Part shown: piece after piece, positions 9,745 through 14,064 of the stretch
Layout of the letters: every line of letters starts with the position of its first letter
Position numbering within the stretch: the first letter of the stretch is position 1
NCBI RefSeq assembly: GCF_005876985.1
Contig: NZ_VAHD01000003.1
Span: 62,001 to 126,000, forward strand
DNA length: 64,000 bases
Direction: 5' to 3'
From: Rhodoferax bucti
GTDB lineage: Bacteria > Pseudomonadota > Gammaproteobacteria > Burkholderiales > Burkholderiaceae_C
Translations under genes and position numbers: made by a program
Notes under the pieces: model-generated
What the model was told of the DNA's origin: nothing
Databases searched by the model: none
Seen by the model: the letters and a program-made list of their open reading frames with translations, nothing else

Positions 9745-9798
9745 TACTATGAAATTAGGAGCTGCTTGCGCATACAGGATGTGCGCTAGCGGCTGATT
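9745..9798 (+). repeat. Dispersed ~55-base repeat, copy A
   Basis: A copy of the repeat with core AGCTGCTTGCGC, preceded by a CTATGAAATTAG segment and followed by GTGCGCTAGCGG. It starts right after the stop codon of the VWA gene and lies upstream of the small unknown gene. Confidence 0.8.
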
Positions 9799-9817
9799 GG
9801 ATGACAAGGAAAACAAC

Positions 9818-10231
9818 ATGCTGTTAACAGACATTGCCGTCGAGCACACCATCGCGCCACCCAAAGGCGGGCTGAGCGTGACGGTGTTGCTGCACCCATT
9901 TACCAACACCCAGCGCGATTCGCTCGGCAAGTTCGAGATCGTCCGCACCGTCCGCGAGCCCAGCGGCAAAGACGTGAAACGCTCCACTTTCGTGTCCTTC
10001 GCCCAACTGGCTGAGCTCTACGCCAAAGGCGTGCTCGACGAGTACGGCTTCTCGGTTCGCATGTGTGTGCCGGGCGGCAAGTACCCCGCTGTGACGCCCA
10101 TCAAGAAATTGCTCCCCACCCACATCAAGTCAGGCTCCCCGTTTGAGCTGGCGGTGAAGGGGGTGGATGTGGCGAAGGAGGCTACTCGGGAGTTGAGGAC
10201 TGCGTTGCTGCGGACTAGCGTCAAGCTTTAG
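9818..10231 (+). CDS. Hypothetical protein, 137 residues
   Basis: I do not recognise this protein. The ATG at 9818 is preferred because AAGGAAA lies a short distance upstream; a TTG at 9797 is the alternative. The predicted product is soluble, with no signal peptide or membrane segment, and is rich in Lys and Val. It begins MLLTDIAVEH and contains PPKGGLSVTVLLHPF and a C-terminal KGVDVAKEATREL. Codon use is GC-biased at third positions, which supports real coding. It is bracketed by two copies of the dispersed repeat (copies A and B) and sits at the edge of the lower-GC segment with the ATPase/methylase pair, on the opposite strand from them. Function unknown. Confidence 0.6.
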   Translation: MLLTDIAVEHTIAPPKGGLSVTVLLHPFTNTQRDSLGKFEIVRTVREPSGKDVKRSTFVSFAQLAELYAKGVLDEYGFSVRMCVPGGKYPAVTPIKKLLPTHIKSGSPFELAVKGVDVAKEATRELRTALLRTSVKL

Positions 10232-10290
10232 ATTGCTATGGAGTTAGGAGCTGCTTGCGCATGTTCCATAGGCGCTACAGCCTGTTTTTA
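10232..10290 (+). repeat. Dispersed ~55-base repeat, copy B
   Basis: Begins immediately after the stop codon of the 137-residue gene. It shows GCTATGGAGTTAGGAGCTGC, then TTGCGC, a spacer, and GGCGCTACAGCC. It has the same orientation as copy A, so the small gene lies between two direct copies about 440 bases apart. Confidence 0.8.
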
Positions 10291-10497
10291 ACCACAATTT
10301 TTCGTCGCAAAGTAGCGCTAAGTCCCACTCTTTGGGCTACAGATCTAATCGTTAGAGCAGGGCTAATTTGGTAAGCATGTTATTTCAATCGCCAAACATG
10401 AGCAGACGATTTCGCATGAGTTGCCGACCAAGGCTTGGGTGTGAGCCGCGTTGCGACCCTAGGCTGTTGTAGTCAATAAAATTTCCGTGCCGGATAT
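10291..10497. other. Non-coding stretch of lower GC between unknown gene and methylase
   Basis: About 200 bases with no convincing open frame on either strand. Composition is clearly more AT-rich than the surrounding cobalamin genes. I see no tRNA, integrase remnant or clear promoter here. Confidence 0.5.
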
Positions 10498-10527
10498 GAA
10501 CTATTTGTAGCTAGCTTCAAATAGTTC
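10498..10527 (-). terminator. Hairpin at the end of the methylase gene
   Basis: A perfect 10-base inverted repeat, GAACTATTTG and CAAATAGTTC, separated by a 10-base loop. It overlaps the stop codon of the minus-strand methyltransferase gene. No T-run follows on the minus strand, so it may be an mRNA 3'-end stabilising hairpin rather than an intrinsic terminator. Confidence 0.45.
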
Positions 10528-11395
10528 AAGCTGCCATTTTCTCTATAGACATCAGTGGAGCTGCGATACGCTTGCTGAAAAACATCACTTCTGAACCGGT
10601 GTAGCGCCGTTGGGCCGTGTAGTTCAGGCCATACGCATACGGTGTGGCGTACGCATACATTTCTTTGATCTCGTCCGCATTGTCATATGAGACGACCCAA
10701 GGCCGCCTAAAACGATCACTTCCTAACAGCTTCGCTATTCGGACATGGTCTTCATGTTTGTAAAAATTACGATAAAGACCTGCACCTTTAACGTAGTAGG
10801 GCGGGTCCAAATACACAAGAGATTTGGCAGGCAAAAACTGATGGCACCGCAATAGCAGTTGGTGCGCGTCTTCTTCATACACATGTATGCCACCGGCATG
10901 GGCACCGATGCGATCCAAGCGCAAACACAACTCATCGCGCATGAAACGCGCATTGATCTTGTAATCGCCTGACTGCGCTTTCCCGCCGATTACGCCGCCC
11001 TTGAGAATGCCGGACCGATTCGTCCGGTTCATGAACAGCGTGGCAAACCCGCGCTCCAAATCAGACCCAGGCACATTACCAAGCATCACGCCGCGCCAGT
11101 GGTGCCATGCATCCATGTCGATGGGCTCCGATGCGACCATGGCCACGAGCTGATCCGACTGTTGCGTGGCGGCCCGCCAAAAATCGGCAATTGCCGGATC
11201 TGCATCGTTGATGTGGACATGCTCAACGATACCGTCCACCAGCAGACACAAAGCAACGCCAGCACCGCCAGCGTACGGCTCAAGGTAGTGGCCACCCGTG
11301 AGGTCATTGTCCGCAATCACCCCGGCTATCAAGGGCGCAAAGCGCGCTTTGCCTCCTGGGTAGCGCAGTGGGGTGTATAGCTTGTTGGAGTACAT
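10526..11395 (-). CDS. DNA adenine methyltransferase, D12 (Dam) class
   Basis: A 289-residue N6-adenine methyltransferase of the MethyltransfD12/Dam class. The N-terminal LRYPGGK is at residues 10-16, the SAM-binding block YLEPYAGGAG at 37-46, and the catalytic DPPYY near 195-199. This order fits the alpha group that includes Dam and DpnIIA. Target sequence cannot be read from the gene. It starts 28 bases after the end of the ATPase gene on the same strand, so the two are probably one transcript with the methylase second. Base composition is near 50% GC by eye, below the neighbouring cob genes, consistent with acquisition. No mismatch-repair partner is adjacent, so an orphan housekeeping Dam is less likely than a role with the ATPase. 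Confidence 0.88.
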   Translation of the reverse strand: MYSNKLYTPLRYPGGKARFAPLIAGVIADNDLTGGHYLEPYAGGAGVALCLLVDGIVEHVHINDADPAIADFWRAATQQSDQLVAMVASEPIDMDAWHHWRGVMLGNVPGSDLERGFATLFMNRTNRSGILKGGVIGGKAQSGDYKINARFMRDELCLRLDRIGAHAGGIHVYEEDAHQLLLRCHQFLPAKSLVYLDPPYYVKGAGLYRNFYKHEDHVRIAKLLGSDRFRRPWVVSYDNADEIKEMYAYATPYAYGLNYTAQRRYTGSEVMFFSKRIAAPLMSIEKMAA

Positions 11396-11423
11396 AAAAA
11401 CGGGTAGCTGTTCCGAGCTTACC

Positions 11424-13085
11424 TCATGGACTTTTCGTCAATCGGGCAACAGTGCGCGATATCGCGAGCTCGAAGGCCGCTTCGAACTCTCCCGCCTCTG
11501 TTTGGTAGACCTCGGCCCACCGCTCGACCACTCCCCATTTCTTTAATTTGGGCCAGTTCTTTGTCCACCAGTTCTTGGTGCTGTCCCGTTTGGTGCTTTT
11601 GCCAGCACCATCTTCAAAAAAGACGGATTGAATCCTGTCGCTGGTCGGATTTGTGATGTTGAGATTCAGCAACGCCTCGTGGAGGGCGCCATCGCCTGAC
11701 TCTGAAATGTCTCGCAAAAATTTCTTCACGGTGTTTTCCGATGATCTGGCGGTCCCGGCAGAGCCCGCAACGCATGGCAATTTGACGGCATTGCCTCGCG
11801 CTGCAGCCTCATTCGGAATGGTCGTATCCGCATCGACGACCAAAACCCGATTCAAGAAAAGTGGGTCTTTGGCAGGGAAGCCCAGCAAATTCGACCCACC
11901 AACGCCCAGCGGAATCCAATTGATCCGCACGCCATATTTCTTGGCCAGCGCCAATTTCTTGGCTGCTGGAATCAGTCCACTGCAAAATTCCGTAGCTTCT
12001 TCGTCCTCGAAGTAGATTGCCAACGTAGGCTTTGCCTTCCGAGACGGCTTGTCATCGTCGGGAAGCAAGGCCATATCGTTGAGGATGGCGCGAAGCGACT
12101 GATCTTTGGCAATGCGGGGGTGCTTCGTATCCAGCAGATAGACCACGCTGTCGGGAGCTTTTGCGTTCCCGTCGCCATCGGGATGCACCGCCTCGATCAG
12201 CCGTGGCGAGTGGGTAGTCGCGATGATTTGCAGATCGAGGCGATTCGCGCAAGATTTCAATGACTTGACAAGCCGCTCAATGGCATGCGGATGAAATCCG
12301 ACATCCATTTCGTCGACGACCAGCAATCCGCCTGGATAGTCGTCGCCCATATCCCTCTTCAACTTGCTGAACGATGCTAGCGCGGTGGCGATGCTGCCCA
12401 GACTGTCTTGACCCATGGAGACCGCAAACGGCCCATGCTTTTCGTAGCCGGGCTGGGCCGACTTCTTTTTCGCCCCTTTGATGGATTGGTGATTCACGTC
12501 GTTGGTCAACTCCGCCCCAAGAATCACGGCGCTGACAAACTCCCGCATAAGGGCGCTGTCATCCGCGTGCATAGCCAACTTGACGCTGCTGACATCCTTC
12601 TCCTCTGCTTCCCCCACGGAGGCAAGGCGCTTCATCCCAAGATAAATCGTTGGCAACGGTACTTTCGCGTCTTGACCAACGGTATCGCCTTCTACTTTGT
12701 CCACCGTACGGGGCACAACCCTGGCCCGCTGCCATTGAGTGCGCTGGGTCATGGAGCATCGCTTCTTGACTTCCACACCGCCGACATTTGCTATGACTAC
12801 TGGTGCGGACGCAGTGTTCTTCTGCGCTTCCACCACTTCGTCCAAAGCCAAGAAAACAATTTGCTCAATGTTTGCGTAGAAAGGATCGCCCAAGTATGTC
12901 TTAGGTCCACTGCGCTCGGTAATGCCGAATGTGTTGGCCACTAAACCCAATATGGTCGACTTGCCAATGCCGTTATGACCGGCGATAAGCGTTAGCCTGT
13001 CGGCGAACTGGATGTCGAAACTCCCGAGCTTGCGGAAAGGCGGCTTTCCGAACGTCAGTGATTTGACTTTGACTTTGTTTGACAT
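11424..13085 (-). CDS. OLD-like AAA ATPase with C-terminal TOPRIM-like region
   Basis: A 553-residue protein with an ABC/SMC-type ATPase. Walker A GHNGIGKS is at residues 36-43, a signature-like SMGQDS precedes Walker B LLVVDEMD (about 252-259), and the H-loop region ATTHSPR is near 290. The C-terminal half has an acidic strand IYFEDEEATEF near 358 and RVLVVDADT near 415. These are spaced like the Glu and DxD motifs of a TOPRIM nuclease, as in OLD and Gabija GajA proteins. The ATG at 13085 is preceded by a strong GGGAGG; an in-frame TTG at 13097 is ignored. It is the first gene of a two-gene operon with a Dam-class methylase. The TOPRIM assignment is inferred from motifs only. Confidence 0.75.
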   Translation of the reverse strand: MSNKVKVKSLTFGKPPFRKLGSFDIQFADRLTLIAGHNGIGKSTILGLVANTFGITERSGPKTYLGDPFYANIEQIVFLALDEVVEAQKNTASAPVVIANVGGVEVKKRCSMTQRTQWQRARVVPRTVDKVEGDTVGQDAKVPLPTIYLGMKRLASVGEAEEKDVSSVKLAMHADDSALMREFVSAVILGAELTNDVNHQSIKGAKKKSAQPGYEKHGPFAVSMGQDSLGSIATALASFSKLKRDMGDDYPGGLLVVDEMDVGFHPHAIERLVKSLKSCANRLDLQIIATTHSPRLIEAVHPDGDGNAKAPDSVVYLLDTKHPRIAKDQSLRAILNDMALLPDDDKPSRKAKPTLAIYFEDEEATEFCSGLIPAAKKLALAKKYGVRINWIPLGVGGSNLLGFPAKDPLFLNRVLVVDADTTIPNEAAARGNAVKLPCVAGSAGTARSSENTVKKFLRDISESGDGALHEALLNLNITNPTSDRIQSVFFEDGAGKSTKRDSTKNWWTKNWPKLKKWGVVERWAEVYQTEAGEFEAAFELAISRTVARLTKSP

Positions 13086-13290
13086 TGAACCTCCCAATTT
13101 TTTTCTAATAGTTGATCTTTGTGCAGAGCCGCCTAGGCAACCCTACGCTTCAATGTTATCGAAACTCGCCGGCCACCCGTAAGCACCACGACAACTCAAT
13201 GCTTAGACCGGTAGGTGAAAACAGCGGGGTACGGACATATGAAAATCGAATAAAGAATTCCCTGCCGCGTGGCTTCCTCGGGTCATTCCG

Positions 13291-14064
13291 TCAGCCAACC
13301 ACCCGCCTCATCAAATAAATATCCATCACCCACCCATGCGCTGCGCGCGCGGCTTGGCGCTCTGCCTGAATCCGCTCGCTCACTTCGGCCAGCGGCCCGG
13401 CGATGTAGATTTGTTGGGGCATGCCCAGGTAAGCGCCCCACCAGATGGTGATGCCTTCGGGCGTCAGGTGTTGGAAGGCGCAGTGGCCGTCCAGCATCAC
13501 GGCGATGGTGTCGGCGCTCCCGGGCCAGCCGTGGTCGCGCAGTTGGCGGCCGGTGGTGATGGTGACCGGGGCGTTGATGTCGTTGAGCGCAATGGCGTGA
13601 GCGGCGGTCAGCGCTTGCAGGGCGGTGATGCCGGGCACCACCGATATCGCCAGCGGCAGTTGCAGCGCCAGCCGGTCTGCAATGCGCAGGGTGCTGTCAT
13701 ACAAAGACGGGTCGCCCCACACCAGCAGGGCCACGCGGCCCCCCTCGGGCAGATGGGCGCGGATTTTTGCCAGCCACACCTCGGCAATGGCGTCGTGCCA
13801 GCGGTTCACTGCGCCGGGGTAGTCCGGGTCTTGCGCGTCGCGCACTGGCATGTCGAACTGCACCACTTGCGTGCCAGGGTTGGTGACCAGCTCTTGGCAC
13901 AACGCCAGCCGCAGCTCGGCCAGGTCGGCTTTGCCGTCGCCTTTGTGCGGCACGAGGATGAGGTCCGCCGCGTTCAGCGCTTTCACGCCCTGTCGGGTGA
14001 CGTGGTCGGGGTTGCCGGTGCCAATGCCGACCAGGTAAAGTTCAACTCTCATGCCGGCATTCAT
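13291..14064 (-). CDS. cobF: Precorrin-6A synthase (deacetylating)
   Basis: A 257-residue tetrapyrrole methylase. CobF methylates C1 of precorrin-5 and removes the acetyl group, giving precorrin-6A; the enzyme is specific to the aerobic pathway. The N-terminal [18 protein letters not shown] and the middle [20 protein letters not shown] are typical of the family. The ATG at 14064 overlaps the cobM stop as ATGA; a second ATG at 14052 (MRVELYL) is also possible. It is the last gene of a minus-strand operon cobL-cobE-cobM-cobF and is followed by the lower-GC segment. Confidence 0.93.

What the first reader, a model, noticed from the sequence alone, without database searches (positions are those of the whole stretch)
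10526..13085. Two-gene cassette: OLD-like ATPase/TOPRIM protein with a Dam-class methyltransferase
The upstream gene has a complete ABC-type ATPase (GHNGIGKS, LLVVDEMD, ATTHSPR) and a C-terminal EDEE / VVDADT pair that looks like a TOPRIM nuclease. The downstream gene, 28 bases away, is a D12 adenine methyltransferase. Known OLD classes pair with nothing, a UvrD-like helicase (Gabija), a reverse transcriptase, or a split arrangement as in PARIS. A Dam partner would give a restriction-modification-like logic: methylation marks self DNA and the nuclease is licensed by ATP. The segment is lower in GC and interrupts the cobalamin cluster, as a mobile defence island would.
Basis: partly seen in the sequence, partly recalled or inferred. 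Interest (0 to 1): 0.72.

Follow-up and report, generated by a model that had tools for sequence, protein, structure and literature searches.

The report
Dam methyltransferase paired with OLD-like ATPase
Two neighbouring bacterial genes, one likely marking DNA with methyl groups and the other looking like an ATP-driven nuclease, form a pair that recurs in prophages and mobile DNA of several bacterial phyla and probably protects cells against viruses.

Summary
Window 11424-13085(-) encodes a 553-aa ABC-type ATPase whose C-terminal domain carries invariant E, DxD and K residues; 28 bases downstream, 10526-11395(-) encodes a D12 adenine methyltransferase. The pair recurs: of 74 viral-contig loci with room to see the neighbour, 72 have this Dam subfamily adjacent; so do 6 of 6 phage and 7 of 7 plasmid-collection records (some near-duplicates), from Pseudomonadota, Bacillota and Fusobacteriota. 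A pair-length query is at least 80% covered in 85 of 5,426 complete E. coli genomes. The Dam belongs to the B family of the validated system PD-lambda-5, whose A protein is unrelated to this ATPase. Of 30 Dam loci sampled, 19 have the ATPase, 9 a PD-lambda-5_A-like partner, 2 neither, none both within the stretch held. The insertion site is a hotspot: four congeners carry other cargo there, including candidate defence genes. Most likely this is a two-gene, restriction-like prophage defence system; methylation-licensed cleavage is inferred. TOPRIM rests on invariant residues and partly matching spacing; fold and sequence comparisons are not decisive. No description was found in the papers searched. 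New variant of a known kind.

The parts
11424..13085 (-). ABC/OLD-like ATPase with probable C-terminal TOPRIM nuclease, 553 aa
   Evidence: (PHROG_3940, residues 16-545, 2.6e-74)
10526..11395 (-). D12-class (Dam-type) N6-adenine DNA methyltransferase, PD-Lambda-5_B family, 289 aa
   Evidence: PDLC04018 4.7e-107, 355.6 bits
12957..12980 (-). Walker A (residues 36-43, GHNGIGKS)
   Evidence: K42 in 72 of 72 aligned sequences
11427..12062 (-). C-terminal domain (residues 342-553), probable TOPRIM plus helical tail
12006..12008 (-). E360, candidate metal ligand (D361 and E363 follow)
   Evidence: E360 and D361 72/72, E363 64/72
11826..11834 (-). D418-x-D420, candidate metal ligands
   Evidence: 72/72 each
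11574..11576 (-). K504, candidate catalytic lysine
   Evidence: 72/72
10796..10807 (-). DPPY motif of the methyltransferase (residues 197-200)
   Evidence: read
10208..13298 (.). inserted cassette; edges from synteny with G217 (10207 and 13299) and, nearly, G703 (10207 and 13302)
10497..10528 (.). near-perfect palindrome overlapping the 3' end of the Dam gene, possible terminator

Best explanation
It is a mobile two-gene anti-phage system of restriction-modification logic. The Dam-type enzyme methylates adenine at a specific site in the resident DNA. The OLD-like protein, an ABC ATPase joined to a TOPRIM nuclease, cleaves DNA that lacks the mark, with its nuclease controlled by nucleotide binding. 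Shown here: two intact genes, conserved pairing, invariant ATPase residues and a candidate nuclease site, membership of the Dam in the PD-lambda-5_B family, and location in mobile elements and in a variable insertion site. Inferred: nuclease activity, DNA as target, and methylation as the self mark.
For: Pairing: 72 of 74 assessable viral loci, 69 of them with Dam at most 100 bp downstream on the same strand; 6 of 6 phage records; 7 of 7 plasmid-collection records. Pairwise distances of the two proteins correlate, r = 0.53 over 55 non-redundant pairs, 0 of 2000 permutations as high. The Dam is PD-Lambda-5_B; [quoted passage not shown] Candidate site: E360, D418, D420, K504 in 72 of 72 and an acid at 450 in 72 of 72 (47 E, 25 D), resembling Bp OLD E400, D455, D457, K562 and E508 (PMC7049728 passages). 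E to first D is 58 here against 55 and 54 in Bp and Ts OLD; acid to lysine is 54 here and 54 in Bp OLD. Hotspot cargo in congeners includes the PADLOC candidate pair PDC-M02 and a C5-methyltransferase cassette.
Against: TOPRIM is not detectable by sequence: no TOPRIM family among the 25 most matched Pfam families over 72 members (38 matched, 25 shown); none in the PDB profile search of the domain; hhalign to GajA aligns the DxD strand at only about 1% probability and to P2 Old not at all. Foldseek of the domain alone has no match at E <= 0.001. The middle spacing differs: last D of DxD to the acid is 30 here against 51 (Bp) and 47 (Ts), and the S/T two before the acid is S or T in only 34 of 72. 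Two related loci, L056 and L071, keep the ATPase without this Dam subfamily, though another D12-like ORF lies 1096 and 59 bp away on the opposite strand. A weak partial relative (G426, L046, 62.9 bits) has no Dam in its 3.5-kb stretch. In Vibrio phage ValB1MD-2 the genes are convergent. Related effectors can target tRNA (PARIS AriB, PMC12409363 title; Septu, PMC13096335 abstract start).
Confidence: 0.53

Rival explanations
1. Abortive-infection guard system. The ATPase-TOPRIM effector is a dormant toxin that cleaves RNA (for example tRNA) or host DNA. The Dam restrains it or acts as bait, and phage interference with methylation or DNA-mimic proteins release it.
For: PtuA chains of retrons head the structure list for the ATPase (Z 17-18), tied with SMC heads (5xei, Z 17.9) and followed by Septu PtuA (Z 16.7-17.0). 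AriB TOPRIM of PARIS and Septu cleave tRNA (PMC12409363 title, PMC13096335 abstract start). PD-lambda-5 is called RM+Abi (PMC9519451).
Against: A DNA methyltransferase partner suggests a DNA-marking role; nothing here points to RNA.
Confidence: 0.28
2. Two separate prophage cargo genes: the Dam protects phage DNA from host restriction, and the OLD-like protein independently excludes superinfecting phages.
For: Prophage genomes carry both, in annotated phages beside repressor and integrase genes. In viral loci two recurrent neighbour families look, by my reading only, like a repressor and an integrase.
Against: Tight adjacency in Pseudomonadota, Bacillota and Fusobacteriota, correlated divergence, and the same Dam family beside an unrelated PD-lambda-5_A protein.
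Confidence: 0.1
3. Not a nuclease system: an ABC ATPase and Dam that act in prophage DNA maintenance or gene regulation.
For: The ATPase half resembles SMC/Rad50 heads; the C-terminal fold comparison is not decisive; no activity was tested.
Against: Invariant candidate nuclease residues, hotspot location, PD-lambda-5 kinship of the Dam.
Confidence: 0.06

Closest known systems
PD-lambda-5 (Vassallo et al. 2022, PMC9519451)
   Same: Same Dam family (PD-Lambda-5_B, 355.6 bits); two-gene layout; found in prophages.
   Different: The A protein (501 aa in E. coli locus L143, 556 bits to its model) shows no relation to this ATPase (hhalign probability 0.1%). A relative in L145 is annotated ParB/Srx-like.
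OLD family nucleases, classes 1-5 (PMC10568477, PMC12796447, PMC7049728; passages)
   Same: N-terminal ABC ATPase; C-terminal domain with an OLD-like catalytic set.
   Different: The partner is a Dam methyltransferase. Described classes are standalone, with a UvrD-like helicase (Gabija), with a retron, split (PARIS), or the archaeal class 5. TOPRIM is not proven here.
Type II restriction-modification
   Same: Methyltransferase beside a putative nuclease.
   Different: The putative nuclease is an ABC ATPase-TOPRIM protein; shared recognition of a site is untested.
Septu / retron PtuA
   Same: Among the closest ATPase structures (Z 16.7-18.0; tied with SMC heads).
   Different: PtuA works with an HNH protein PtuB (partly from titles of the listed structures, partly recalled); here the second domain is fused at the C-terminus and the partner is a Dam.

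Membership tests
PD-lambda-5 | B component: Dam-type methyltransferase | tested here: met
   PDLC04018 4.7e-107
PD-lambda-5 | A component | tested here: not met
   Model PDLC04017 absent from the genome at E <= 10 (1 of the 25 A models); no A model among the 25 best of 139 PADLOC families for P0001 (the other 114 were not shown); hhalign of the A2 profile to a true A protein 0.1%
OLD family | N-terminal ABC ATPase with Walker A, Walker B and H-loop | tested here: met
OLD family | C-terminal TOPRIM nuclease domain | tested here: inconclusive
   Invariant residues and two of three spacings fit. OLD, PARIS and retron-Eco2 entries are 7 of the best 50 rows at Z 5.5-6.2 but tie with unrelated folds up to 6.5. 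No sequence match
OLD class 1 | standalone gene | tested here: not met
   Dam neighbour here and in 72 of 74 assessable loci
OLD class 2 (Gabija) | UvrD-like helicase gene adjacent | tested here: not met
   No helicase gene lies directly beside the pair in the window (ORFs by reading; TP_methylase by Pfam), nor among annotated genes directly beside the ATPase
OLD class 3 (retron) | reverse transcriptase and ncRNA | not tested
   No family search of the other window ORFs for a reverse transcriptase and no Rfam search were run
OLD class 4 (PARIS) | ATPase and TOPRIM in separate genes | tested here: not met
   Single 553-aa ORF
Type II restriction-modification | nuclease and methyltransferase recognise the same site | not testable with these tools
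   needs methylome and cleavage assays

The most novel reading that the evidence does not exclude
A further OLD class: a methylation-licensed ATPase-TOPRIM restriction system in which one Dam family serves as a common hub for two unrelated, exchangeable effectors (OLD-TOPRIM, or the ParB-like PD-lambda-5_A). It is carried by temperate phages and integrative elements of at least three phyla.
Probability: 0.42. Interest if true: 0.74.

Novelty: new variant of a known kind. Interest (0 to 1): 0.58.

Why it matters
OLD enzymes are known with helicase, retron or split partners, and how they tell self from foreign DNA is still debated. A tightly conserved Dam partner offers a directly testable self mark. 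Related pairs occur naturally in E. coli, so the question can be settled by ordinary cloning and plating in K-12. The pair also suggests that PD-lambda-5 is one of two effector arrangements around a common methyltransferase family.

Tried and rejected
TOPRIM by sequence: Pfam over 72 members, PDB profile search of the domain, and hhalign to GajA and P2 Old gave nothing significant. With GajA the DxD strand aligned in register, but at about 1% probability. Whole-model Foldseek ranks TsOLD and GajA 2nd and 3rd (E 1.6e-9) behind an SMC head, with TM-scores of about 0.27; I take this to be driven by the ATPase. The domain alone gave sugar-binding and other folds first, none at E <= 0.001.

The S/T-x-E metal-B signature of OLD nucleases, which the window protein seems to have at 448-450, is not conserved in its relatives: S or T in 34 of 72.

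Straight membership in PD-lambda-5 was considered because of the Dam hit and rejected because the A protein is unrelated.

Repeated partner swapping on the Dam tree: the quick tree needs 5 label changes, but starred branches force only 1. After I left out four rows, chosen after seeing the tree (L098, L171, L172, L173), the AU test against a single PD-lambda-5_A clade gave p = 0.048. Suggestive only.

P0003 (9797-10231) as a third component was rejected: blastp found it only in the window's own loci among those held, and it belongs to the syntenic flank in G217. Direct repeats flanking the insert: none reported.

Rows dropped before counts; 5 of 79 viral loci where the contig ends at the ATPase gene (L043, L067, L090, L091, L093); 72 pairs (window included) collapsed to 55; 105 Dams collapsed to 83. 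Alignment A2: short and duplicate ATPases left out by the script. The first neighbour table labelled four overlapping downstream Dams as upstream; one search corrects this. Loci L187-L189 were fetched and not analysed.

On re-checking I lowered the best explanation from a drafted 0.55 to 0.53 and raised two rivals by 0.01 each, because of the S/T count and the middle spacing.

Full report
WHAT IS THERE. On the minus strand, 13085-11424 encodes a 553-aa protein and 11395-10526 a 289-aa protein, 28 bases apart, both intact. The first matches AAA_21 and AAA_15 and, over residues 16-545, PHROG_3940 of unknown function (2.6e-74). Its best PADLOC models are ATPase matches of about 60 bits or less (25 best of 139 shown). 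The second is a D12 adenine methyltransferase with DPPY; its best PADLOC model is PD-Lambda-5_B (355.6 bits), ahead of a type II methyltransferase model at 291.4 bits.

THE PAIR RECURS. A profile scan of viral contigs gave 79 loci (149 candidates, best 80 kept). In 5 the contig ends at the ATPase gene. Of the other 74, 69 have this Dam subfamily within 100 bp downstream on the same strand, 2 within 1000 bp downstream and 1 just upstream. Two (L056, L071, one cluster) have none but carry another D12-like ORF nearby on the opposite strand. The loci fall into 50 clusters at 70% identity; 47 hold a paired Dam, and of the other 3 two are cut at the contig end. All 6 phage records matched by the ATPase are also matched by the Dam, close by; two of them carry the same phage name and two Streptococcus records have the same length, so about four phages. 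Four of the 6 neighbourhoods were viewed; in phiNP the Dam is not annotated and was found by tblastn. All 7 matching plasmid-collection records hold the Dam beside the ATPase. Two Acinetobacter records are alike and two Psychrobacter records share a Dam accession, so about five kinds, and several records are chromosome-sized. In L011 the ATPase ORF is shorter than in relatives (404 aa) and the gap is 587 bp.

Among 299 genomes of the same family, 35 match at 1e-3. The 6 with E below 1e-25 all have the Dam downstream; the weaker ones are other ATPases, and the 24 of them held as loci show no Dam. In a phylum sample 3 of 398 genomes match at 1e-15: the window's own, one with a Dam (L045) and one partial match without (L046). 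So it is sparse. Six close relatives from genome contigs all have the Dam downstream; in one (L006) the ATPase ORF is only 343 aa. A pair-length query from Citrobacter phage phiNP is covered at least 80% in 85 of 5,426 complete E. coli genomes, and 135 have some match; strain 042, for example, has it beside integrase genes. A more distant relative sits in an integrative element, and one with the order reversed sits in a P2-like prophage between replication endonuclease and portal genes.

TWO PARTNERS, ONE DAM FAMILY. Searching viral contigs with the Dam instead, 16 of 16 loci have a partner: 13 the OLD-like ATPase and 3 a PD-lambda-5_A relative. By contig name 7 of the 16 were already in the set. 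Among 14 family genomes with the Dam, 6 have the ATPase, 6 a PD-lambda-5_A-like match (five weak, 57-99 bits; one 428 bits) and 2 neither in the stretch held. Together: 19 ATPase, 9 PD-lambda-5_A-like, 2 neither, 0 both, of 30. Twelve loci found with the E. coli PD-lambda-5_A protein all hold the Dam and none the ATPase within 3 kb. This does not exclude both partners elsewhere in one genome. PD-lambda-5_A in E. coli locus L143 matches its PADLOC model at 556 bits and shows no relation to P0001. The Dam tree is compatible with several partner changes but does not force them.

THE EFFECTOR. AlphaFold2 on 72 aligned sequences (the window's and 71 relatives) gives mean pLDDT 90.2 for the whole protein and 92.8 for residues 342-553 alone. 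The ATPase half matches retron PtuA, SMC and Rad50 heads (best Z 18.0, rmsd 4.2, 280 aligned; SMC head 5xei Z 17.9). In the C-terminal half E360, D361, D418, D420 and K504 are in 72 of 72, E363 in 64, and position 450 is E in 47 and D in 25. PMC7049728 (passages) gives the Bp OLD ligands as E400, D455, D457 (metal A) and E404, T506, E508 (metal B) with K562, and for Ts OLD E377, D431, D433, D381, S478, E480 with R487. What fits: E to first D is 58 here against 55 and 54; acid to lysine is 54 here and in Bp OLD; the second acidic residue is at +3 as in Cran1 E338/E341 (PMC12796447 passage), but +4 in Bp and Ts. What does not fit: DxD to the next acid is 30 here against 51 and 47, and the S/T of S/T-x-E is kept in 34 of 72. 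The equivalence of position 450 and K504 is my inference from order and spacing. The fold comparison is not decisive. OLD C-terminal structures (6njx Z 6.2, rmsd 5.2, 157 aligned; 6nk8 Z 5.9, 6.9, 165; 6p74 Z 5.8, 3.8, 126), PARIS (8ux9 Z 5.7, 5.4, 154) and retron-Eco2 (9i2f Z 5.5, 4.9, 164) tie with unrelated folds (1yio Z 6.5, 4.7, 103; 4irx Z 6.0, 7.2, 159). No sequence search of the domain, and no Foldseek search of it alone, finds TOPRIM.

THE PLACE. Of 41 genomes searched in the genus, 5 including the window's own hold the flanking tetrapyrrole methylase gene. Synteny with the window stops at 10207 in G217 and G703 and at about 9775 in G685 and G713, and resumes at 13299-13306 in all four. 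All four have different cargo there. G217 has an IS30-like transposase (by eye), a protein with a sub-threshold HEPN match and one with an N-terminus like CBASS endonuclease effectors. G685 has both proteins of PADLOC candidate PDC-M02. G703 has a protein with weak PDC-M38A and PD-Lambda-5_A matches (67 and 63 bits), an unmatched protein and a C5 methyltransferase. G713 has one unmatched 295-aa ORF; G713 also has a second copy of the flanking gene on another contig, not examined. The insert is 53.3% GC. In viral loci one neighbour family, nearly always upstream, recurs in 30 of 51 clusters and a second, mostly downstream, in 13 of 51. By reading they look like a phage repressor and an integrase, consistent with annotated phages.

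HOW IT PROBABLY WORKS. Conserved adjacency, correlated divergence, a Dam family already part of a validated defence system that was tested in a host lacking mrr (PMC9519451, passages and section 7), and a probable TOPRIM effector point to a compact restriction-like module. Methylation marks self and the ATPase-TOPRIM protein attacks unmarked DNA. The main rival is an abortive guard system. Neither was tested.

NOVELTY. The pair is not a named system among the 25 best PADLOC-DB 2.0.0 (2023) hits of P0001 or of eight relatives. Searches of the held library gave no description of it in the listed titles and abstract starts or in the passages read. The listings were short (one search listed 20 of 250,041; 15 of 23), and preprints and most subscription papers are not searched, so an existing description is possible. 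The OLD review PMC10568477 (passages) and PMC12796447 (passages and section 7) list other partners; in the main text of PMC12796447 the word methyltransferase does not occur. PAPI-1 hotspot 3 is reported as enriched in PD-lambda-5 and type II RM (PMC12629846 passages), so some related pairs may be hidden under those names; this was not checked.

Noticed in passing
L180 2282-6129, L181 7630-9464, L182 4240-8384, L183 3785-4826: The same cobalamin-cluster site in four congeners holds different cargo, including the PDC-M02 candidate defence pair and a weakly PD-Lambda-5_A-like protein followed by an unknown protein and a C5 methyltransferase.
   Followed up: partly
L183 3904-4791 (-): Unmatched 295-aa ORF alone at the hotspot; no Pfam match at 0.01 or PADLOC match at 0.001.
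   Followed up: no
9797-10231: Small ORF of 144 aa without a family match at E 0.05; syntenic and open in G217, only partly aligned in G703, not aligned in G685 and G713.
   Followed up: partly
9747-9798 and 10236-10287: Two 52-nt direct repeat copies (75% identical) flank the 9797-10231 ORF; part of the sequence also matches congener loci.
   Followed up: partly
L145 4663-6066 (-): A PD-Lambda-5_A relative is annotated ParB/Srx-like in RefSeq, which suggests a fold for the PD-lambda-5 effector, which has no Pfam match in L143.
   Followed up: partly
L056 7777-8568 (-), L071 3546-4337 (-): A different 263-aa D12-like ORF near the only two assessable viral ATPase loci that lack the usual Dam.
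   Followed up: no
L144 3650-6210: P2-like prophage with the order reversed: Dam first, then the OLD-like ATPase, between replication endonuclease and portal genes.
   Followed up: no
10497-10528: Palindrome (16-nt arms, 94% complementary) overlapping the Dam stop codon, a possible terminator.
   Followed up: no
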